From a virus: a stretch of DNA of 64,000 bases. The translations under genes were made by a program, and so were the position numbers. The notes beneath the pieces were generated by a model, which was not told the origin of the DNA, did no database searches, and was given only the letters and a program-made list of their open reading frames with translations. This document shows positions 46,894-57,956 of this stretch, in pieces (position 1 is the stretch's first letter; each line of letters opens with the position of its first letter). The stretch covers positions 1 through 64,000 of the IMG/VR virus record IMGVR_UViG_3300021137_001014, one strand, 5' to 3'.

Positions 46894-48729
46894 TTATATT
46901 AATGTTCTAATTGGTGTTGATACAACTGGTATTACAACTATATCACTATTAGGGTTTCTTAATTGTAGAATTTGATTTTCGTCACAATTTAATATACCTG
47001 TTGTTATATCTATCTCCCCTGTTGAGGTGTCTAAAATGTTTTGATTAATAGTATTTTGTGAATATCCTGAAGTTGTTTCATTAAAAACCTTGATATAATT
47101 TAAATTAAGAACACCTTGTATTTGGGAAATTATTTTATTCAAGTTGTAAACATAATAACTTTGACCCATTTGTCTATTAGTTGAAACAAATTCATTGGTT
47201 ACAGCAGAAATTATTTGTGTTACTGTTGAAAGTTGTGATGTTGAATCTACAACAACAGATATTTCAAAACCCAAATCAACAACTTCGCCAGGTTTTACAA
47301 CAACATAATCATTTATCATCCTATATTCTGAAAGATATGTAGCTATATTTTCGAGTATAACACTTGTTATTTGTGAATCGAAAGCGCCACTACTATCAAC
47401 AGTTATTGGATTAACTTCTATTTTATTTTGATTTTGTCTCACACCTACTCTTGCTGGGGTACCAAATTTACTTGGCATACCCAGTAATATTGCTTTATAA
47501 TCATTTAATGTTACAGCTCTGTTTTGAGCAGCGAAATTATATGATATATAATTTCTCAATTCCTCAATTGATGGAGCTTCACCTCCACCCACAGCTGGTG
47601 TAATGTTAGTAACAGTCAAAGAGCCTTGTACGATACCATTAAGCTGCGCATCAGGGCCATTCAAAGTTATATTCAAATATCCAAATGATGTAATCACATT
47701 AGCGCCAACATTACTTGAGGATCCACCACCAACTCTATATTTTACATACATTGTTGTATTTGTTAGTGGTGCATAACCTAAACTATTATTGTTCAATAAA
47801 TTACTTAATGAAATACTATTACCAGATAGAAATGAATCAAGTATATCGAATGCTTGGTTTGTTTGTCCACCGAATGTTAAAGTACAAAAACCTGTAGGTG
47901 TAAATTCTCTCACAAATCTATAGTTTGTATCTAACCATATACCTTTGTAAATACCATCACTTGTTGGCGGTACAGTTGTATCGTATACAAAAACTGAATT
48001 TTCAGCTAATGAATTTACCTCATACCATTTGTTTGTTGGTGAAGCAAACTCGTTATCTGTAGGATTAGTTGTGAAGTTTATACCGTTTTTGTGAATCACA
48101 GACTCAATATCAAGAACATTATTTTCTGGTAATGTTATTTGATAAAAAGGTGTTGGTGGTGTATTGTTAAATACTTGCGTATATATTCTCGTTGTACCAG
48201 CGACAACTATACCTGTTTTGGTAATCAAATATGCTGTTAATATACCATTATTGAAAACTGGTGTTTTTGTTCTATCTAAAGCACCAGAAGAGTTCAGGTT
48301 ACTACTAAAATCAACATCATACAAAAGTTCAAAAGTTTGGCCATTACCTTGTACTTGGGTACCAGCTTTTAAAACAGGTAAATATCTTGTGTCTTCAGCA
48401 TCACCAAAAACTGGTACTTGAACTGAGAATTGGCATACGGCTATACTTGCTGATAATGTTGGTAATTTTAAACCATAAGTTTTAGCTATATTAAACAGCG
48501 ATCTTCCTTCTTGAGCAAAATCAAGTACAGTTTCCTGTAATGACCTATCAATATTAAAATGTAGGTTATCCGCCAATGCCGCTCCAAGGTCAAGAAAGAC
48601 AGACATAATTGATCCATCATTAAAGTTTTGGATTACATCAGGATAATATTTATTTATATAATCTATCTGCTCTTGTCTTAAAGTAGCAAAGTCTCTACTA
48701 CCGTATGATATTGTATTTGTTGTTGCCAT
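46894..48729 (-). CDS. Baseplate wedge protein, gp6/baseplate J-like
   Basis: 611 residues. The N-terminus (SYGSRDFATLRQEQIDYINK, then a DGSIMSVFLDLGAALADNL segment) and the C-terminal half (GEAPSIEELRNYISYNFAAQ, NRAVTLNDYKAI) are hallmarks of the T4 gp6 / baseplate J family. In T4, gp6 forms the inner iris ring of the baseplate with gp53 and gp25. It directly follows the gp25-like gene. Confidence 0.9.
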   Translation of the reverse strand: MATTNTISYGSRDFATLRQEQIDYINKYYPDVIQNFNDGSIMSVFLDLGAALADNLHFNIDRSLQETVLDFAQEGRSLFNIAKTYGLKLPTLSASIAVCQFSVQVPVFGDAEDTRYLPVLKAGTQVQGNGQTFELLYDVDFSSNLNSSGALDRTKTPVFNNGILTAYLITKTGIVVAGTTRIYTQVFNNTPPTPFYQITLPENNVLDIESVIHKNGINFTTNPTDNEFASPTNKWYEVNSLAENSVFVYDTTVPPTSDGIYKGIWLDTNYRFVREFTPTGFCTLTFGGQTNQAFDILDSFLSGNSISLSNLLNNNSLGYAPLTNTTMYVKYRVGGGSSSNVGANVITSFGYLNITLNGPDAQLNGIVQGSLTVTNITPAVGGGEAPSIEELRNYISYNFAAQNRAVTLNDYKAILLGMPSKFGTPARVGVRQNQNKIEVNPITVDSSGAFDSQITSVILENIATYLSEYRMINDYVVVKPGEVVDLGFEISVVVDSTSQLSTVTQIISAVTNEFVSTNRQMGQSYYVYNLNKIISQIQGVLNLNYIKVFNETTSGYSQNTINQNILDTSTGEIDITTGILNCDENQILQLRNPNSDIVVIPVVSTPIRTLI

Positions 48730-48731
48730 AA

Positions 48732-49148
48732 TTAGAATGTAATTGTTACGTCATCAGAAACCTCAAAAGTTCTGGAAGTTATTGTATAATCAATTGTTAC
48801 TGTTACTTTATGATGTGATTGTTGATCATTAACATATGCTGGATCAGTATCATATCGTTTTATATTAATTGTATTAATTTTTAAATTTGGTAAAAATGCT
48901 GTGCAAGCATCCTTTATTTCATTTTGGATTGCTGTTGTTACATTATCCGTCAATGGTTCAAATATATATTGATATAAATTTGTACCAAATTCTGGTAAAA
49001 AATATCTTGATCCCTTTCTTGTTAATAAAAGGTGTACCAAATCAGATTTTATTTCTTTCTCAGGATATGTTGTTAAATCCAAAAAATCACCGTTTGTAGA
49101 ATCCTGGAAAGGAAAATTTATACCTATTGTTTTTTGCCTGAAATTCAT
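48732..49148 (-). CDS. Baseplate wedge protein, gp25-like
   Basis: 138 residues of the gp25/W family: HLLLTRKGSRYFLPEFGTNL YQYIFEP is the conserved R-G-x-R-x-x-x-P-x-x-G core, followed by the helix TTAIQNEIKDACTAFLPNLK and a final beta hairpin. It nucleates sheath assembly and the wedge core. It is the first gene of the structural operon, right after a strong terminator. Confidence 0.92.
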   Translation of the reverse strand: MNFRQKTIGINFPFQDSTNGDFLDLTTYPEKEIKSDLVHLLLTRKGSRYFLPEFGTNLYQYIFEPLTDNVTTAIQNEIKDACTAFLPNLKINTINIKRYDTDPAYVNDQQSHHKVTVTIDYTITSRTFEVSDDVTITF

Positions 49149-49252: not shown

Positions 49253-49810
49253 TTATATTCCTGAATTACATTCAGCAACCAATTTACACATGTATATAAA
49301 ATAATCTTGTGAATAAATCCGTTTCATCATATTAATATCTTTATGTACCCATTGTACATTTTCTTCAATATAACCTTTATTATTATCAATTCTGTCTAAA
49401 GACATTGTCATATTATTATATGTACTTTCTAACAACAAACCACTTAAAGAGCATAATTTATTCTGTTTTATAAACAAATCGTTTAGATAAGATATTGTTA
49501 GTTTAAATTCTATATTTCTAAGTTTAGCATCTCTTTTTATTTTACTAAAAACTTTACCAGGTATATTATTAAACCCTTTCCATGATGGGTTATTTTCTTT
49601 TTTTAATGAGTTACCACAATTTAAACATTTTGTTGATGTACCTTTGATTAAAGAGTAACACGATACTTTTTTTATTTCACCACAAGAGCATTTACATGTT
49701 ACTTTAGCTTCTTTTTCAATTATAATTTTTTCATCAATAATAGAATATTCGCCATATTTTTGACCAATAGTAAATTTATTTGAATATTTAGATGTATTTT
49801 TACGTCCCAT
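49253..49810 (-). CDS. Free-standing HNH homing endonuclease
   Basis: 185 residues. The N-terminal part has CKCSCGEIKKVSCYSLIKG and KCLNCG, a zinc-ribbon-like set. The C-terminal part has the HNH core: LCSLSGL, SLDRIDNNKGYIEENVQWVH and a final helix. Such genes are mobile and insert next to conserved phage genes. It sits between the reductase 3' end and the shared terminator. CTATTTATT lies 5 bp before the start. Confidence 0.85.
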   Translation of the reverse strand: MGRKNTSKYSNKFTIGQKYGEYSIIDEKIIIEKEAKVTCKCSCGEIKKVSCYSLIKGTSTKCLNCGNSLKKENNPSWKGFNNIPGKVFSKIKRDAKLRNIEFKLTISYLNDLFIKQNKLCSLSGLLLESTYNNMTMSLDRIDNNKGYIEENVQWVHKDINMMKRIYSQDYFIYMCKLVAECNSGI

Positions 49811-49873: not shown

Positions 49874-50551
49874 TTATCTTACTTCGCACCCATTTGCACC
49901 ACATGCAACCTCGCCTTTTTGGTCAGTATTGTCTTCATGTTCGATTATTTTTGTTAAATCGATAGCTGTTAAATGATTTATCATTTCATCGTATTCTTCT
50001 TTAGTGATGTCAGTAAAGGGGGCTTGGATATAACTTCCACCATCATAAGGTAATACAGATAATCCATTATAGAATTCTTTATTATCCCACATCCATGTAC
50101 CTACTGTATCCCATTCATCTTCCTTGATTGCAATAGTAGCTGATACGTTATGTGTGTTTTCACCCTTTCTATGGCCAGGTTTAATCCATTCTTTGCTAAT
50201 TTTTTTAACTCTTTCCAACAAATTTATAGCTGATTCAGTTCTATAAATTGAGTTTTCTGGTGCTTTTTGAGGAACACTGATAACAGCCGTATCGTGTGGT
50301 CTAAAATATTCATCTTCAATAAGTTCTGGATGATACATATATAAATAATTATATATTGACTCATTTTTACCAACACGGATTCTACGGATGTAATAATCAT
50401 TGTGCCATGCGTGAATACCTGAAGATGTACCAAGAACTAATGAGCTTGTATTATGCGATACAATACCGTTCTTTAATTGATAGTTTGGTGTATCCTCAAC
50501 TTCAATATCCACCGTAAAGTTTTTCTTAATTTCCTTTTTAATTATTTTCAT
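49874..50551 (-). CDS. nrdJ: Split-intein C-half plus C-terminal part of class II ribonucleotide reductase
   Basis: 225 residues. Residues 1-34 (MKIIKKEIKKNFTVDIEVED, ending GIVSHN) are a C-intein with the canonical penultimate His and terminal Asn. The extein begins with Thr35 in TSSLVLGTSSGIHAWHND, which continues exactly from the KPSG end of the extein in 51613-55254. The last residues (ACGANGCEVR) carry the C-x4-C redox pair at 217 and 222, with the same spacing as Cys731/Cys736 of Lactobacillus RTPR. Protein trans-splicing with the N-part would give an unbroken reductase. The gene starts 14 bp inside the end of the Vsr-like nuclease gene. Confidence 0.9.
   Translation of the reverse strand: MKIIKKEIKKNFTVDIEVEDTPNYQLKNGIVSHNTSSLVLGTSSGIHAWHNDYYIRRIRVGKNESIYNYLYMYHPELIEDEYFRPHDTAVISVPQKAPENSIYRTESAINLLERVKKISKEWIKPGHRKGENTHNVSATIAIKEDEWDTVGTWMWDNKEFYNGLSVLPYDGGSYIQAPFTDITKEEYDEMINHLTAIDLTKIIEHEDNTDQKGEVACGANGCEVR
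50450..50551 (-). other. C-intein of split intein 3
   Basis: 34 residues, block F (FTVDIEVEDTPNYQL) and block G (GIVSHN) of an intein, starting with its own ATG. The next residue is Thr, which can act as the splicing nucleophile. The matching N-intein is encoded at 51616-51948. Confidence 0.9.
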
Positions 50552-51563
50552 ATATTTTATTTTTTAATTCAATTATTATATTTTCTTTGTTTTTTTGATA
50601 ATCATTCTCCCATACAGTGATAACCGCATAACCACGATTGATATATAGGTTGTCTTTCTCATTATCAATTAATCTCACTTCTTTTACTGTTTTATTAACT
50701 CTTGGTATTATTAGGTTTTCGTTATTAAAGATATTTTCCGAACCATGCCAAAAATCACCGTGATAATTGATAATTACTTTTATGTCTGGCAATATTATAT
50801 CTGGATATAATATACTATTTTTAATTTTATAATTTTTCTTTTCTGAGTTGGTTAATATTATACCGTACTTCTCTTGATAACCTAAAATAGTCCCTTTGTA
50901 GAATTGTCTTATATCATTTTCCAATAATATTTGTCCTTTAGAAACATTATCACCACACATTATGGCTTTAGTTGTTTGTATAACCCAATCATTATATTTA
51001 ATTACACCATCAACTTCACCATATTTAGCTTTCCACCATTCAATATTTCTACTTTGGTGTTCGGTTAATTTATGTTTTGCTTCTTCGATATTACCTTTAC
51101 ACTTCTCAATCCAATAATTTAATCCCCAGGAAGATGTTAATCTATTTTTTTCACGATAAATATTATACTTCTCAACACCCTTATCGTAGTTACCACACTC
51201 TTTAGCAAAATTATCAATCGACCTAATGGATTTTACTTGATGTTTAGTTCTAATAATATCTATTTCTTCATTAGAGAACCCATTATTTTTTAACGTATCT
51301 TCACTAACAGATAATTTAGAGTTTTTTTCTAACCATTTGCTTGTACCATCTTTATCACCAAATTTATCAACGTACCATTTCTTAGTACCACGAATTTTTA
51401 GTTTATTTTTGTAACTTAACCATCTCAAAGAACCCTCTTCTAAACCATATTTTTTAATTAAATTATCTTCTGTAATAGCTGATAATTTTTTACGTTCTTC
51501 CCAGAGCCTTAAACCCTCAAATTCACCATACTTTTTAATCCAAGATTGTTTCACTGATGCCAT
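50538..51563 (-). CDS. Vsr-like (EDxHD) homing endonuclease between split-intein halves
   Basis: 341 residues. The N-terminal 200 residues contain repeated KYG-x(2)-EG-x(3)-W motifs (WIKKYGEFEGLRLWEERKKL; LIKKYGLEEGSLRWLSYKNK; WWKAKYGEVDGVIKYNDWVI), probable DNA-binding repeats. The C-terminal domain is of the very-short-patch-repair type: YPDIILPDIKVIINYHGDFW HG, then a DNEKDNLYINRGYAVITVWE segment. Nucleases of this family have been described between halves of split inteins in metagenomic phage sequences. It would cut the uninterrupted reductase gene and spread the split arrangement. It begins 49 bp after the N-part and overlaps the C-part by 14 bp. Confidence 0.85.
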   Translation of the reverse strand: MASVKQSWIKKYGEFEGLRLWEERKKLSAITEDNLIKKYGLEEGSLRWLSYKNKLKIRGTKKWYVDKFGDKDGTSKWLEKNSKLSVSEDTLKNNGFSNEEIDIIRTKHQVKSIRSIDNFAKECGNYDKGVEKYNIYREKNRLTSSWGLNYWIEKCKGNIEEAKHKLTEHQSRNIEWWKAKYGEVDGVIKYNDWVIQTTKAIMCGDNVSKGQILLENDIRQFYKGTILGYQEKYGIILTNSEKKNYKIKNSILYPDIILPDIKVIINYHGDFWHGSENIFNNENLIIPRVNKTVKEVRLIDNEKDNLYINRGYAVITVWENDYQKNKENIIIELKNKIYENN

Positions 51564-51571
51564 AACTATTC

Positions 51572-51587
51572 ATTTTATATAAATAGT
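51572..51587 (-). promoter_or_regulatory. Promoter-like TTTATATAAA element before the Vsr-like gene
   Basis: On the minus strand ACTATTTATATAAAAT lies 8 bp before the start at 51563, in the 49-bp spacer. It could provide independent expression of the nuclease and of the C-part of the reductase. Confidence 0.35.
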
Positions 51588-51612
51588 CTAACAACAGTGA
51601 AACGAACTGAAT

Positions 51613-54600
51613 TTAGAAAATTTTTATTAAAAAGTCATCATTTTCTGTGATTTCCTTAGCCTCTTTCCATGTACCATCAACCATCATAAATTTATGGTTT
51701 GGTGTACATTCAATAACAGTACCATCTTCCATAACAAATTCTATTGTTTCCTCATAACCATTTACAAACAACTTAGTTATAGTTTTTTCTTCATTTAGGT
51801 AATTATAAACTTTAATATCTTCTGTAACATCGTACCATTCACGATATTCATTTAGTTTAGTACCCAAGTCAACACCATTTAATTTGAATATATCATCAAG
51901 TGATAACGTACCCCTATTTGTTCTAATTTCAGTAGATGGTATTTGGCAACCTGATGGTTTAACTGTTGTTGTTCTTGCGGCAGCATTTATACCTATAATT
52001 GCCGCAACACGAGCATTTTCTTCTTTTACAAGTTTAGCTGCTCCCTTAATATCGTAGTTTAATACAATACCAGAACCGATACCTGTCATTCCTACACCAA
52101 TTAGAGCCTCTTTTTCAGTAGTTCTTTTCCAAATCTCACGAAGATAATGGAAGTCTGTATAACCAGCCTGTAATGTACCTATAAATGCGGCAGCTTTAAC
52201 TCTTTCGTTGTAGTCTTCCTGAGATTCAATATTTGAAACATTTACCTCACATAGATTACAGAATTGATATGGTCTTAGTGCAATTTCGCAACAGTTACCT
52301 GTAATTAATTTAGAAATTTGAAAACAATGTGTTGAATCAAATACAGAAATATCCCAAACATCCTCATATATATTTGTTAATTCAACGGATTCAACCTTTA
52401 TTTGTTTATCATCATGAATATTATATCTAAATTTATAAGAATCTAAAATATCTTGTTTATATTTATTTGTTAATTTAAACAAGGAAATAAAGTGTTTTAT
52501 TGAACTTGTTTCACATATTCTTAAATCATATCTTGTAAATTCACTATCATAACCATCTAATTTAGATTTAGATGTTTTTATTTTAGATTTTATACCGTAG
52601 AAACCTAATAATTCAGATAAATCATCCACTAATTGTTTATGTGAAGATGTAAATGTTATTCTTTTTTGTGTTTTACTTACATTTCCATCTGAACTGAATA
52701 ATGCATCAACTAAGCCCTTTCTAAAATTTTCTGAACCATCAACCCAAACCGACTTAGGTAAACCATAGTTTTTATCCACATTACCAAACTTTTTAATATA
52801 TAAATCAACCTCTTTATTATTTATAGATATCTCTTTTGTGTGTGTATCAACAAGAACTATTTGCATCTCCTCCTCAATATTTTGGTGTTCCTTTTTGAAT
52901 CTACGATTAAAATTACCATTAAATGTTATAACATTTGTTTTTAATGTATTTAATAATTTATCGGATATATTAGATTCATCATCAGTGTCGGATACTATCA
53001 TACCATATTCTGAATGTTCTTTTCTATTTGAAACCCAACCATCACCAATAATCCAACCACATAAGAAACCATCATCATACCCACCTAAATTACCATCAAA
53101 AAGTTTATTCTCTCTAATTATTGGTAATTTATCACCGTTTGTTAAATCTGGTGTTTTAACTTTAACATACTTTTCACCATCCCAAACGGGCCATTCATGT
53201 TCCTTAGTTGCAAAATATTCGGTACCATCTTCAAGTGTTAACTTAACAAGTTGCTGATTTTTACCAGATAACCAACATTTTGCATCAGATATTTCACCAT
53301 TTAAATTTTTAACTTTAAAACTTTTATCTTGCAACTCCTCAATAGGAAAAATCCCTTCTGTTGTTAACACTTTTGTACCTGCCCTTAACGATGGGTTGGT
53401 ACCCCAATCCTTATCATTTGTGAAATAAATACCAGGTTCTCCAGAACCAGACAACTTGATTCTCAACCAAAGATCATCAAAGAATTCTTTAGTTATTTTA
53501 TGTCTTAGTAACACGGCAGAATTATTCGCTCTACCTCTTTGAGGGTTATTTTCCCACCATGCACCAGATTTACAAGAAATCATTTCATCATCGTCAGCGG
53601 AGAATAAACAAATTAGTGCCGCTCTACGGATACCTCCTGCAAGTACTGCATCTGCAATATAACATACAATATCATGAACTTGAATTGGCGTTAATTTTTC
53701 ACCATCTTCTATAGTATCTAATATTTTTTTAATATTATGAATACAATCTTTAAGTGGTTGAGGCCCTGGAGCTTTACCACCAGATGTAATCAATCTTGCA
53801 CCTTTTGGTCTAATATCTGAAAAATCGAATACTGGTGTTGAAGAAATATCACCTGTATATGATTTTAACAAGGTTTTGATAGCGTCAGCCCATCCTTCAA
53901 TTGAATCAGATATCAAAAATCTTCTGTTTCTTGTTGGGTTTGGTTTTCTTATTTCTGGTAATTTTTCTACGTGATGTCTTTGTACTGAGTAACCAACACC
54001 AGTACCACCAAGCAATAAAAACATTACTTCACTAAAGCAATCAATGTAGTCTATTGGTAAATAACAACAGTTACCAGTCACAATACCACCAGATAAAACA
54101 AAACTTTTATCATCCTCAACTTCAAGACACCACACATCTTCTGATACAAATGAATCATTAACTTCAGTCATAGACCAAGATGTGTTTGGTCTACTACCAA
54201 TGTGATTTGTTATTGAAAAATCTTTAGTTAATGGTCGTTCACCAAAATTTGTTATTTCACCTGTTAAATCAGAAATATTTGTAATATAATAACCACAAAC
54301 CTCCAAATATTTTTTAAGAAAATCTATATGATCTTCCTGTGAAGATTGTATAGATTTATATTTAGATAATGTATTATTTTCATACCAATCTGGGTTTTTA
54401 GCACCGTCAGCGGATAAATAGCCATCCATAAAGGCTTTTATCATATTTAAACCATCTATATTTATATCTGGTGTTGTTTTTAAATATTTACCAGTATAAA
54501 CCATAATATCCCCATCCAAACTATTAGAGGTAGATGTTTCAAACCCCATTTCTTTGAATCTGTAAAGATATTTAGTTGCCTCATCTCCACACAATCTAAC

Positions 54601-55254
54601 CATAGAATATTTAGCTTCACCATTCTTTTTAAGAAGTGTACCATCGCCAAATACATAACCATAACACCAATATAATCTTTCCATAGGTGTTGCACCATTA
54701 TAGTCAAAATTTTCATTTTTTTGTGTTGGAAAGAGTGGTTTATTCAATTCAAGTTCGGTTGTTTCAGAACCATCAAATAAAATCCATCTATGGTTTTTGG
54801 TAACTCTGATGGTTTTTTTACTTTTACCCCTACTAAAGGTGGCTGTTGATAGAAACTGTTTACCATAATTTTTAACAACGGCTGATTTCCAACTACCAGT
54901 ATGTGTTAAAACAGTTATAATATCTCCATGTTCAAAATCCTTAAATGATTTTGTTCCCTCCGATGTAATAAATTCAGTTTCCCTACCAAAACAGTTGTAT
55001 ATTCTGTTTGGTGAAATTTCAATTGGTTTACCGCCAAATTGAAGTGATCTCATAGAAGGTAATACTTTTTTGTCATATACAAATTTGTATTTTTCTATAA
55101 TTTCATCTCTTAACATAGGAAATTTCTTAATATGCATTTCCATGTTTCTTGTTACTAAATCTTCCCAGCTTTCTCTTCTTTCTTTCTCTGGTAAGTACTT
55201 GGCATACTTCATGTATACCGTAATGTCGCTTAAAATTTTTTGTGATATATCCAT
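51613..55254 (-). CDS. nrdJ: Class II ribonucleotide reductase N-part with two inteins and an N-intein
   Basis: 1213 residues. Extein segments are 1-87, 396-621 and 988-1102. They read as an adenosylcobalamin-dependent reductase: VLPSMRSLQFGG, RIYN-CCYLP, LGGTGVGYSVQRHHV, GGIRRAAL, NNSAVLL, NP-CCEIALRPYQFCNL and TTVKPSG. The thiyl-radical Cys is 988 in N-x-C-x-E; the redox partners are Cys396 or 397 and Cys999. Cys988 to Cys999 is 11 residues apart, as is Cys408 to Cys419 in Lactobacillus RTPR. Intein 1 is 88-395, intein 2 is 622-987, and residues 1103-1213 are an N-intein that ends at the stop codon. After all splicing with the 49874-50551 product the enzyme would be 619 residues. It makes deoxynucleotides for phage replication and needs B12. 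Confidence 0.92.
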   Translation of the reverse strand: MDISQKILSDITVYMKYAKYLPEKERRESWEDLVTRNMEMHIKKFPMLRDEIIEKYKFVYDKKVLPSMRSLQFGGKPIEISPNRIYNCFGRETEFITSEGTKSFKDFEHGDIITVLTHTGSWKSAVVKNYGKQFLSTATFSRGKSKKTIRVTKNHRWILFDGSETTELELNKPLFPTQKNENFDYNGATPMERLYWCYGYVFGDGTLLKKNGEAKYSMVRLCGDEATKYLYRFKEMGFETSTSNSLDGDIMVYTGKYLKTTPDINIDGLNMIKAFMDGYLSADGAKNPDWYENNTLSKYKSIQSSQEDHIDFLKKYLEVCGYYITNISDLTGEITNFGERPLTKDFSITNHIGSRPNTSWSMTEVNDSFVSEDVWCLEVEDDKSFVLSGGIVTGNCCYLPIDYIDCFSEVMFLLLGGTGVGYSVQRHHVEKLPEIRKPNPTRNRRFLISDSIEGWADAIKTLLKSYTGDISSTPVFDFSDIRPKGARLITSGGKAPGPQPLKDCIHNIKKILDTIEDGEKLTPIQVHDIVCYIADAVLAGGIRRAALICLFSADDDEMISCKSGAWWENNPQRGRANNSAVLLRHKITKEFFDDLWLRIKLSGSGEPGIYFTNDKDWGTNPSLRAGTKVLTTEGIFPIEELQDKSFKVKNLNGEISDAKCWLSGKNQQLVKLTLEDGTEYFATKEHEWPVWDGEKYVKVKTPDLTNGDKLPIIRENKLFDGNLGGYDDGFLCGWIIGDGWVSNRKEHSEYGMIVSDTDDESNISDKLLNTLKTNVITFNGNFNRRFKKEHQNIEEEMQIVLVDTHTKEISINNKEVDLYIKKFGNVDKNYGLPKSVWVDGSENFRKGLVDALFSSDGNVSKTQKRITFTSSHKQLVDDLSELLGFYGIKSKIKTSKSKLDGYDSEFTRYDLRICETSSIKHFISLFKLTNKYKQDILDSYKFRYNIHDDKQIKVESVELTNIYEDVWDISVFDSTHCFQISKLITGNCCEIALRPYQFCNLCEVNVSNIESQEDYNERVKAAAFIGTLQAGYTDFHYLREIWKRTTEKEALIGVGMTGIGSGIVLNYDIKGAAKLVKEENARVAAIIGINAAARTTTVKPSGCQIPSTEIRTNRGTLSLDDIFKLNGVDLGTKLNEYREWYDVTEDIKVYNYLNEEKTITKLFVNGYEETIEFVMEDGTVIECTPNHKFMMVDGTWKEAKEITENDDFLIKIF
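51616..51948 (-). other. N-intein of split intein 3
   Basis: 111 residues starting with Cys1103 (CQIPSTEIRTNRGTLSLDDI), block A, and including block B TPNHKFMMVDG. It ends ENDDFLIKIF at a stop codon, with no endonuclease domain and no C-terminal blocks. The insertion point is after KPSG, before the extein Thr. Confidence 0.9.
52294..53391 (-). other. Intein 2 with LAGLIDADG endonuclease
   Basis: Residues 622-987 (366 aa). It starts with Ser (SLRAGTKVLTTEGIFPIEEL) and ends ISKLITGN before extein Cys988. Block B is ATKEHEWPVW. The two DOD motifs are FLCGWIIGDGWV and GLVDALFSSDGNV. The terminal pair is Gly-Asn instead of His-Asn. The site splits the catalytic N-P-C-C-E motif. Confidence 0.9.
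54070..54993 (-). other. Intein 1 with LAGLIDADG endonuclease
   Basis: Residues 88-395 (308 aa). It starts CFGRETEFITSEGTKSF and ends SGGIVTGN before extein Cys396. Block B is VTKNHRWILF. DOD motifs are WCYGYVFGDGTL and AFMDGYLSADGA. The site is right before the redox Cys pair of the reductase. The penultimate residue is Gly rather than His. Confidence 0.9.
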
Positions 55255-55329: not shown

Positions 55330-56724
55330 TTACTGGGTTGCGCCATTTTTTTCCCATTTAGATCTTAAATTTTCGTTCAAGCTTTTCTGACGATTTTGCT
55401 TATCTTTATCCTCGAAACCATGTATAGATATGACATCTTCGGTATCAATAAGCATACGTTTATTGTCAAAAAGGCAGTTTTGGAAAATCATTCCATCAGA
55501 ACCCATACGATTTTTCAATATGGTTATAGTCGCTCTACCATTTTCTTTCTGTTCCAAAGTTTTACCAACACTTACAATAAGGTGAGCAATTTGTGCTTTT
55601 TTCAAGTTTCCACCCATATTTTCGGTTTTTACAACCTCAACACTTGTGGATGATCTATTACCTTGTGTAGCTACCCAACTGGCAATGTTTAATTCTGCTG
55701 TCATTGATTCTACTTGGCGCATAATTTTACCTTCATTAGACCAATCTTCTGCTCCAGCAAATTCTTTTTCTGCTGATAAACAATCAAGATAATCAAGAAT
55801 TAATACATCTATTTTATCGCCTTTAGAATTGATTCTTTTGATTGTATTCTTAATTACACCAACGGTACAACCATCTGCGGACAATTTAAGTATATATAAT
55901 TTACCAATACCTTCTTGATTATTGATAATCTTGATTTTCTTTTTAACCTCATCTTTACGCAAAGATAATTCAGGTAACGGAATTTCTGTAGAACAAGAGT
56001 AATGTTTTCTCTGAACATCTTTAGGACTATCCTCAAAAAATATTTGTAATACATTCCTACCTGATCTATAGGCAGTATTAGCTATTTTGGTAAGCATTGT
56101 TGTCTTACCTACTCCAAGTGGCGCTATTATAAGTGCTAATTCACCCCTTGCTAAACCACCATTTGTAATGTTATCTATTCCAGTGATACCAGTTGGAATA
56201 GGTTCTCTATAATCATCAGATAAAACATTATCTATTTCAAATTCAAGATCGATAGGTTCATCTACTTGTCTGAAAGTTAAAGCTTTCTTCAATGTTTCCT
56301 CGATATTATCAATATCTTGTAGAATACCTTTATCAAGTTTGCTTTTGATACTGTTTACAGCATTTTTCAAAGATTGCATTTTACAGAATCTTTGCGCTGT
56401 ATCTTGTACATTTAGATTATTGATTTTACATTTTTGTATGTTATCAATGGTATCTAAAAGTTGTTGTTTAAATGTTTCTGCGTTCATCGGAATATTCATA
56501 TTGACTTCCGTTCTCAACGCAGGGAAATTTAAAAGGCAATTATGTTCTTTGTAATATTCCTTAATAATGTGGGCTATCTTTGAAAAGGCCTCATTTTGAA
56601 AATATTGTTTATCAATAATATCAATAATTGATAAACCAAATTTGTGGTCTGTTATTATTTCATTAAATAATTGTAATTGATATTCAGGACCAAGATCACT
56701 TAAATTTGATATCTTTTCAACCAT
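55330..56724 (-). CDS. DnaB-type replicative helicase (T4 gp41-like)
   Basis: 464 residues. The N-terminal 150 residues are helical, as in DnaB/gp41. The RecA-type motor has Walker A APLGVGKTT at 201-209, the conserved LQIFFEDSPKDVQRKHYSC segment (motif H1a position), Walker B DVLILDYLDCL and the SWVATQGNR sensor-like motif. It unwinds the fork and works with the primase at 22023-23000. Its 3' side is followed by an AT-rich spacer and the reductase gene. Confidence 0.92.
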   Translation of the reverse strand: MVEKISNLSDLGPEYQLQLFNEIITDHKFGLSIIDIIDKQYFQNEAFSKIAHIIKEYYKEHNCLLNFPALRTEVNMNIPMNAETFKQQLLDTIDNIQKCKINNLNVQDTAQRFCKMQSLKNAVNSIKSKLDKGILQDIDNIEETLKKALTFRQVDEPIDLEFEIDNVLSDDYREPIPTGITGIDNITNGGLARGELALIIAPLGVGKTTMLTKIANTAYRSGRNVLQIFFEDSPKDVQRKHYSCSTEIPLPELSLRKDEVKKKIKIINNQEGIGKLYILKLSADGCTVGVIKNTIKRINSKGDKIDVLILDYLDCLSAEKEFAGAEDWSNEGKIMRQVESMTAELNIASWVATQGNRSSTSVEVVKTENMGGNLKKAQIAHLIVSVGKTLEQKENGRATITILKNRMGSDGMIFQNCLFDNKRMLIDTEDVISIHGFEDKDKQNRQKSLNENLRSKWEKNGATQ

Positions 56725-57251: not shown

Positions 57252-57956
57252 TTATTTGTTTTTATTTTTTGCCCATCTTTCTTTAGCTTTCAAAGACATT
57301 TTTTTCTTAGTCTCTTCAGACATATTTTTTTTAGATTCAGACATTTTTCTTTTAGTACCTTCACTCCTTTTTTTTCCAATATTACTTTGAGAAATTTTTA
57401 ATTTAACATCTTCAGTTATGATAGTACCTTTTTTAATATCTGACATCTTTTTTTTATATTCTTCACTTCTGTTCAAAGCGGAAAATCTAATTTTTTCTTT
57501 AGTTTCATCCGACATCTTTTTTTTAGATTCAGACATCTTTTTTTTCGTATCTTCAGAGTGTTTTTTACCTAACTGACCATCAGACATTCTTTTTTTAATA
57601 TCGTCAGAAACAATCTTACCTTTTCTTGCCTCAGACATCTTTTTTTTTGTATCTTCATTATGCCATCCACTCCAACCACCATCACCATTTTCAATTTTTA
57701 GGTTTGCCCACTCTTCTGATTCAACAATATTATATAATTGACTGTAATAAGTACCTTTCTCTTTTATCTCATCATTATTATAACCCACAAATAAAATTTC
57801 AGTTATAATATCTTTTGTTTTTATTTTGTGTTTTTTTATATGATTTAGCCAAACTAAACCACTACCTATATATTTGAAGGGGTCTTTTATGGTTTTTCCC
57901 AAATATTTTAAACCTTTTGGACTTGTTTTAATATAAAGATATATTTTTTGTTTCAT
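57252..57956 (-). CDS. GIY-YIG homing endonuclease with NUMOD3 repeats
   Basis: 234 residues. The N-terminal domain is a degenerate GIY-YIG (IYLYIKTSPKGLKYLGKTIK, then DPFKYIGSGLVWLNHIKKH), of the Seg-like type found in T4-like phages. The rest consists of about six NUMOD3-type DNA-binding repeats (HNEDTKKKMSEARKGK; HSEDTKKKMSESKK; SEGTKRKMSESKK). It lies inside an operon of replication genes and carries with it a recoded 3' end of the neighbouring 5' nuclease gene. Confidence 0.88.
   Translation of the reverse strand: MKQKIYLYIKTSPKGLKYLGKTIKDPFKYIGSGLVWLNHIKKHKIKTKDIITEILFVGYNNDEIKEKGTYYSQLYNIVESEEWANLKIENGDGGWSGWHNEDTKKKMSEARKGKIVSDDIKKRMSDGQLGKKHSEDTKKKMSESKKKMSDETKEKIRFSALNRSEEYKKKMSDIKKGTIITEDVKLKISQSNIGKKRSEGTKRKMSESKKNMSEETKKKMSLKAKERWAKNKNK

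What the first reader, a model, noticed from the sequence alone, without database searches (positions are those of the whole stretch)
49874..55254. Fractured reductase gene: split intein with a Vsr-like nuclease gene between the halves
Seen: the reductase reading frame stops after KPSG plus a 111-residue N-intein. It resumes about 1.06 kb later as a separate gene that begins with a 34-residue C-intein ending in SHN, followed by the exact extein continuation (TSSLVLG). Between them lies a complete Vsr-like nuclease gene. Known: split inteins with intervening Vsr-type homing nucleases were described from environmental phage sequences (gp41, NrdA, NrdJ, IMPDH types). Inference: this is a natural trans-splicing pair in a complete genomic context, and the nuclease copies the whole arrangement into intact alleles. 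The short C-intein and Thr+1 site make it a distinct split-intein candidate.
Basis: partly seen in the sequence, partly recalled or inferred. Interest (0 to 1): 0.88.

Follow-up and report, generated by a model that had tools for sequence, protein, structure and literature searches.

The report
Split phage reductase gene carrying nuclease
A virus of bacteria encodes its DNA-building-block enzyme as two separate pieces, each tipped with half of a self-cutting protein tag that should join them after synthesis, and a gene for a DNA-cutting enzyme sits between the pieces and seems to spread the whole arrangement from virus to virus; this is a new branch of a known kind of mobile element, and its relatives show how such elements spread and decay.

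Summary
A phage class II ribonucleotide reductase (nrdJ) is broken at KPSG|TSS into an N-half ending in a 111-aa N-intein and a C-half beginning with a 34-aa C-intein, with a 341-aa Vsr-like (EDxHD-type) endonuclease gene between them. Removing all three inteins gives 619 residues that align without a gap to intact phage NrdJs. The arrangement is the known "fractured gene" kind (Dassa et al. 2009), so the mechanism is not new. The intein is a distinct lineage: those at this reductase site form their own clade, apart from NrdJ-1 and gp41. New here: (i) a transfer footprint against a close relative (nuclease and C-intein dS 0.26, C-extein dS 1.33); (ii) interrupted alleles scattered among intact ones; (iii) relatives at successive stages: nuclease present, nuclease deleted (unmistakable remnant in one), nuclease replaced by HNH, and one continuous intein nested among split ones; (iv) reductases in three pieces with two split inteins. 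Splicing and DNA cutting remain untested. Thr+1 and the short C-intein are not what makes it distinct.

The parts
51613..55254 (-). nrdJ N-half ORF (1213 aa): exteins a, b and c plus two cis inteins and the N-intein
54070..54993 (-). cis intein 1 (308 aa), NRIYN|CFGRETEF...IVTGN|CCYLPID
   Evidence: boundaries from alignment to intact NrdJ; same-site intein in L096, 75% nt
52294..53391 (-). cis intein 2 (366 aa) with LAGLIDADG endonuclease domain, TNP|SLRAGTK...LITGN|CCEIAL
   Evidence: Pfam LAGLIDADG_3 7.3e-15; boundaries
51616..51948 (-). N-intein (111 aa) of the split intein: Cys1, block B TPNH; follows extein KPSG
   Evidence: Intein_splicing PF14890 over 1147-1206 of the N-half; TIGR01445 5.7e-12
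51564..51612 (-). 49-bp spacer between the N-half stop and the nuclease start
50538..51563 (-). Vsr-like (EDxHD-type) homing endonuclease gene, 341 aa: N-terminal repeats (KYGxxEGxxxW), C-terminal nuclease domain
   Evidence: TIGR00632 4e-6; AlphaFold2 pLDDT 80; Foldseek to Vsr (prob 1.00) and I-Bth0305I (TM 0.69 by target length)
50598..50948 (-). predicted nuclease domain (residues about 206-322) with PDI...GDFWH core
   Evidence: alignment A4: P254, D255, I256, G269, W272, H273 invariant in 10 alleles
50538..50551 (-). 14-nt overlap of nuclease stop with the C-half start codon
   Evidence: an overlap of 4 to 29 nt in all 10 nuclease-bearing alleles examined
50450..50551 (-). C-intein (34 aa), MKIIKKE...NGIVSHN, followed by Thr+1
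49874..50449 (-). nrdJ C-extein (TSSLVLGTSSGIHAWH...CEVR*)

Best explanation
This is a mobile fractured gene. The two nrdJ pieces are translated separately; the N-intein and C-intein assemble into one Hint domain and splice in trans (Cys1 acyl shift, transfer to Thr+1, Asn cyclisation next to the penultimate His), joining KPSG to TSS at a conserved loop of the reductase and restoring a 619-aa enzyme, after two further cis inteins remove themselves. The nuclease gene between the pieces is the mobility module: it is expected to cut intact nrdJ alleles at the KPSG|TSS codons so that repair copies N-intein, nuclease and C-intein together. The C-half start codon lies inside the nuclease 3' end, which suggests coupled translation. 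Over time the nuclease is deleted or replaced while the split intein stays, and in one lineage the halves are one continuous intein again. Shown: anatomy, exact junctions, homology, selection, horizontal spread, nuclease-deletion remnants. Inferred: splicing activity, cut site, coupling, and direction of the last step.
For: All splice-critical residues present in the window and its relatives. Fused cis homologue L204 models as an intein (pLDDT 94.9; best PDB match NpuDnaE intein, E 6e-8). Spliced product gap-free against intact alleles. dN/dS 0.04-0.15 for N-intein, C-intein and exteins and 0.17-0.21 for the nuclease. Window vs L007: nuclease 92%, C-intein 96%, C-extein 78%, flanks 67-70% nt; dS 0.26 vs 1.33 with the step at the junction. 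Extein tree: at least 6 changes forced; window sister to intact L042, L009 (as L193) sister to intact, syntenic L089. Nuclease fold matches Vsr and I-Bth0305I. Nuclease remnant in the gap of L199 (0 of 1000 shuffles; L201 2, L209 2, L206 9).
Against: No splicing, cleavage or expression data. L007 lacks the sequence upstream of the nuclease, so only one edge of the transfer footprint is seen. The transfers could have used ordinary recombination without the nuclease. No Shine-Dalgarno signal was scored for the C-half. Remnants in L097, L194 and L203 are weak or not significant (121, 25 and 733 of 1000 shuffles).
Confidence: 0.88

Rival explanations
1. The gene is simply broken: a pseudogenised reductase with dead intein halves and a hitch-hiking nuclease.
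For: No expression data; two other inteins in the gene add load.
Against: Purifying selection on both intein halves, both exteins and the nuclease; catalytic residues kept across many lineages; no second nrdJ C-extein in the 78.7-kb own record or the 190-kb record.
Confidence: 0.04
2. The two pieces work as separate subunits without ligation, as may be so for the split nrdJ reported in Thermus phage phiYS40.
For: Two-piece nrdJ is known in Thermus phage phiYS40 (PMC3653736).
Against: Here each piece carries an intein half with all catalytic residues at the break, in a conserved loop; intein halves left in place would sit there. Selection on the intein residues themselves is strong (C-intein dN/dS 0-0.04).
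Confidence: 0.03
3. Split intein and trans-splicing are real, but the nuclease does not drive the spread; the cassette moves by ordinary phage recombination and the nuclease is a passenger or a free-standing element.
For: Several split alleles lack the nuclease, one has an HNH nuclease instead (L207), and a putative HNH-type gene also flanks nrdJ in the window.
Against: KPSG-site nucleases form a lineage of their own (L005, L009, L094 100/99; with L118, L119 93/86) and are under purifying selection; the one visible edge of the footprint lies at the insertion junction.
Confidence: 0.12

Closest known systems
Fractured genes with split inteins and Vsr-like/EDxHD homing endonucleases
   Same: Gene broken between two intein halves, free-standing Vsr-like nuclease gene between them, phage nucleotide-metabolism gene.
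   Different: Insertion site KPSG|TSS and a separate intein clade; whether this site was among the two nrdJ cases of that study could not be checked.
NrdJ-1 split intein (PDB 8ubs)
   Same: Also a split intein in nrdJ, split at the usual endonuclease position.
   Different: The NPC| site (NrdJ-1's own site is from memory; NPC-site relatives tested here) lies over 100 residues upstream; different intein clade; the nucleases at that site are another family without the Vsr core. Both kinds occur together in L094, L096 and L119, giving three-piece reductases.
I-Bth0305I, the characterised EDxHD homing endonuclease (PDB 3r3p; PMC3943268)
   Same: Catalytic domain fold (TM 0.69 by target length); [quoted passage not shown]
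   Different: Sits between intein halves; own N-terminal KYG repeats; about 11% identity.
MIJ3 polB and Aes123 PolB1 split inteins
   Same: Split intein with a free-standing nuclease in an isolated phage (MIJ3); an Aes123 'putative VSR endonuclease' is the best viral structural match.
   Different: Different host gene and site; Aes123 PolB1 is a cysteine-less intein.
Cis inteins of Campylobacter phage NrdA (L111, L112)
   Same: Homologous reductase site (within one residue) and same intein clade.
   Different: Continuous inteins in class I NrdA, without a nuclease inside.

Membership tests
Split intein (Hint fold, canonical split) | Cys1, TxxH in block B, penultimate His, terminal Asn, Cys/Ser/Thr+1 | tested here: met
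   C1, TPNH, SHN|T in the window; kept in its relatives
Split intein (Hint fold, canonical split) | Hint fold and intein profile match | tested here: met
   PF14890 2.5e-10, above cut-off; L204 fused homologue best PDB match NpuDnaE intein, E 6e-8
Split intein (Hint fold, canonical split) | Trans-splicing activity | not testable with these tools
   needs co-expression
Fractured gene with EDxHD homing endonuclease | Two extein-intein ORFs flanking a free-standing nuclease gene | tested here: met
Fractured gene with EDxHD homing endonuclease | Nuclease of Vsr-like/EDxHD type | tested here: met
   TIGR00632 4e-6 but below its cut-off; Foldseek Vsr prob 1.00, I-Bth0305I TM 0.69; PDI and GDFWH core
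Fractured gene with EDxHD homing endonuclease | Horizontal transfer into intact alleles | tested here: met
Fractured gene with EDxHD homing endonuclease | Site-specific cutting of the intact allele | not testable with these tools
   needs purified nuclease
NrdJ-1 split-intein allele | Insertion at NPC| and same intein clade | tested here: not met
   site KPSG|TSS; clade separate from NrdJ-1
Vsr mismatch-repair endonuclease (proper) | Score above curated cut-off | tested here: not met
   27.1 bits vs 97.85 (TIGR00632); 20.1 vs 27 (PF03852)
Class II (B12-dependent) ribonucleotide reductase | RNR barrel and class II insertion domain in the spliced product | tested here: met
   PF02867 42.3 bits (cut-off 23.9), PF21995 31.5 (cut-off 27); NCBIfam TIGR02505 3.6e-76 but under its equivalog cut-off
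Group I/II intron | Intron RNA at the break | tested here: not met
   no Rfam intron match, E up to 0.5

The most novel reading that the evidence does not exclude
This reductase site hosts a long-lived split-intein lineage that passes through a life cycle of its own: empty site, split intein with homing nuclease, nuclease deleted but gene still fractured, nuclease replaced (HNH), and re-fusion into a continuous intein that keeps the former start methionine of the C-half (L204). In some phages it co-exists with a second, distinct split intein, so one enzyme is built from three polypeptides by two trans-splicing reactions.
Probability: 0.5. Interest if true: 0.68.

Novelty: new member of a known kind. 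Interest (0 to 1): 0.52.

Why it matters
Split inteins are widely used protein-ligation tools and few lineages are characterised; this one is a separate clade with about 20 natural variants, a Thr+1 site and natural partners (NrdJ-1-site type) with which it must not cross-react in the same protein. The allele series (empty, nuclease-bearing, nuclease-deleted, nuclease-swapped, continuous) makes the fate of fractured genes testable: whether splitting is reversible, and why the gene stays fractured after the selfish nuclease is gone. The nuclease 3' end holds the start of the C-half in every case examined, which may explain what deletions leave behind.

Tried and rejected
Assembly error: rejected, other contigs 99.9-100% identical and diverged relatives share the layout. 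Intron: no Rfam match. Matches at the site in Streptomyces, Roseobacter and Methylophilales phages looked as if they reached into the C-intein but are intact genes there; CRP-7 is split elsewhere around another ORF. Relatives in prokaryote genomes: none found with nuclease or N-intein patterns; these patterns reach close relatives only. PDB sequence search with the nuclease: nothing relevant. Thr+1 and C-intein length as distinguishing marks: rejected. Dassa 2009 could not be read, and no held paper has 'NrdJ-2' with intein, so earlier description of this site is not excluded. The PDB structure matches of the nuclease all have E above 0.001; they were accepted only because they agree with the sequence profiles and the conserved core.

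Full report
OBSERVATION. The minus-strand gene order in the window reads DnaB-like helicase (55330-56724), nrdJ N-half (51613-55254), nuclease (50538-51563), nrdJ C-half (49874-50551), a putative HNH-type gene (49253-49810; no Pfam or NCBIfam match), gp25-like (48732-49148) and gp6-like (46894-48729; the last two named from sequence likeness only). The N-half ends in KPSG followed by a 111-residue N-intein; the C-half starts with a 34-residue C-intein ending SHN and continues TSSLVLG. The N-half holds two more inteins in cis, so the gene has three inteins and one of them is split. Cutting all three out gives 619 residues that align without any gap to intact 619-residue phage NrdJs, 78% identical. 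The spliced protein carries reductase barrel and class II insertion domains.

The window lies in a 78.7-kb viral record. The region is 99.9-100% identical in two other IMG/VR contigs, one of 190 kb, and partly in a third. That, and the same layout in diverged viruses, rules out assembly error. No second nrdJ C-extein was found in the own record or the 190-kb record.

SPLIT INTEIN. Cys1, the TPNH of block B, the penultimate His, the terminal Asn and Thr+1 are all present. The fused N+C sequence matches Pfam Intein_splicing above its cut-off and DnaE inteins of the PDB by sequence (E 2e-9). A natural continuous homologue (L204) is predicted with pLDDT 94.9 and matches NpuDnaE, RecA and gp41-1 inteins. 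The split is at the usual endonuclease position.

NUCLEASE. The NCBIfam Vsr model matches with E 4e-6, far below its cut-off, so it is Vsr-like, not Vsr. The AlphaFold2 model (mean pLDDT 80) matches E. coli Vsr (probability 1.00) and the catalytic domain of the homing endonuclease I-Bth0305I (TM 0.69 by target length), though with weak E-values, as only the C-terminal third is shared. P254, D255, I256, G269, W272 and H273 are invariant among ten alleles. The best viral structural match is a putative VSR endonuclease of Aeromonas phage Aes123. Its stop codon overlaps the C-half start codon in all ten nuclease-bearing alleles examined, by 4 to 29 nt (for L144 the ATG is 3 nt after the position printed).

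A DISTINCT LINEAGE. Scans with the nuclease and N-intein gave a wide set of fractured genes. In a tree of intein sequences alone, all inteins at this reductase site form one group: support 95/97 with 10 rows, 94/87 with 20 rows, apart from the NrdJ-1-site and gp41-site inteins. The group spans class II reductases (KPSG, KPAG), other reductase subfamilies in large phages (APTG, APAG, QPTGN) and cis inteins of Campylobacter phage NrdA (APTA, PPAGN). In L146 and L111 the insertion is one residue later. The nucleases of the nearest alleles also cluster (100/99), and with L118 and L119 at 93/86; nucleases at the NPC site are a different family.

SPREAD. Against L007 the nuclease is 92% and the C-intein 96% identical in DNA, but the C-extein 78% and downstream genes 67-70%. 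dS is 0.26 in nuclease and C-intein and 1.33 in the C-extein, with the step at the splice junction. L007 begins inside the nuclease, so the other edge is unseen. On a tree of exteins from 76 intact and 11 interrupted alleles, the interrupted ones are scattered; well-supported branches force at least 6 changes. The window's extein is sister to intact L042, and L009's to intact L089, which has the same gene order. L094 carries an intein of the window's group in an extein that groups with L119 and L210 (90/82). The intact alleles were chosen by likeness to the window, so the counts are not frequencies. dN/dS is 0.04-0.15 for intein halves and exteins and 0.17-0.21 for the nuclease.

DECAY. Seven split alleles lack the nuclease (L097, L194, L198-200 as one, L201/202, L203, L206, L209). 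The gap in L198-200 holds 26 codons aligning to the nuclease C-terminus (WDSDWQTN; 0 of 1000 shuffles as good); L201, L209 and L206 give 2, 2 and 9 of 1000; L194, L097 and L203 are weak or not significant. So in the clear cases the nuclease was deleted and the gene stayed fractured. L207 has an HNH gene in the gap (PF01844). In L204 the intein is continuous, with a Met exactly where the split forms start (TEDDDI|MKIVKKE), and lies inside the split group, sister to L207 (99/91). Re-fusion is the simplest reading, but the direction is inferred.

THREE-PIECE REDUCTASES. L094/L093, L096 and L119/L120, and with another reductase L206, carry this split intein and a second one at or next to the NPC site, so that the middle piece has a C-intein at its start and an N-intein at its end. 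L096 is cut off inside the second N-intein.

KNOWN OR NEW. Fractured genes with split inteins and a Vsr-like nuclease family were described by Dassa et al. 2009, which could not be read here; a later paper reports that two nrdJ cases were among them (PMC3653736). An isolated phage with a split intein around a nuclease gene is also known (MIJ3). This is therefore a new member of a known kind; whether its site was seen before is not excluded. What is added is the site-specific lineage, the transfer footprint and the allele series. Splicing, cutting and translational coupling are inferred, not shown.

Noticed in passing
G001 (190-kb record of the same virus) 127800-135000, locus L240 with L243: Terminase large subunit is also fractured: about 30-aa N-intein after NQELN, a Vsr-like nuclease ORF, then a long C-intein ending ILSHN|CAFIGSG. 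Resembles atypically split inteins.
   Followed up: partly
G001 149000-157500, loci L242 and L241: A ClpA/B-like AAA gene is fractured at its Walker A motif (GDPGVGK|TAIVEG) with a roughly 35-aa N-intein, a 497-aa Vsr-like nuclease ORF and a long C-intein; so this virus has three fractured genes.
   Followed up: partly
window 49253-49810: Putative HNH-type gene directly after the nrdJ C-half (no Pfam or NCBIfam match); L007 has a diverged one at the same place (66.5% nt) and L009 a short remnant.
   Followed up: partly
window 52294-53391: Cis intein 2 sits at NP|CCEI, one residue before the split-intein site NPC|CEI used in L094, L096 and L119; it starts with Ser and has Gly before the final Asn.
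   Followed up: no
L093 1732-2199, L094 345-812: The DnaB-like helicase gene of these relatives is itself split at QGNR| by a gp41-type split intein with no nuclease between the halves.
   Followed up: partly
window 57252-57956: ORF with NUMOD3 motif (PF07460, 4.8e-12), probably another homing endonuclease.
   Followed up: no
L176, L179, L188, L132, L143, L149: Further fractured phage genes found by the nuclease scan, with sites MTIH/LSIH|C, KLDG|C, VSGG|S and IVDE|C; host genes not identified.
   Followed up: no
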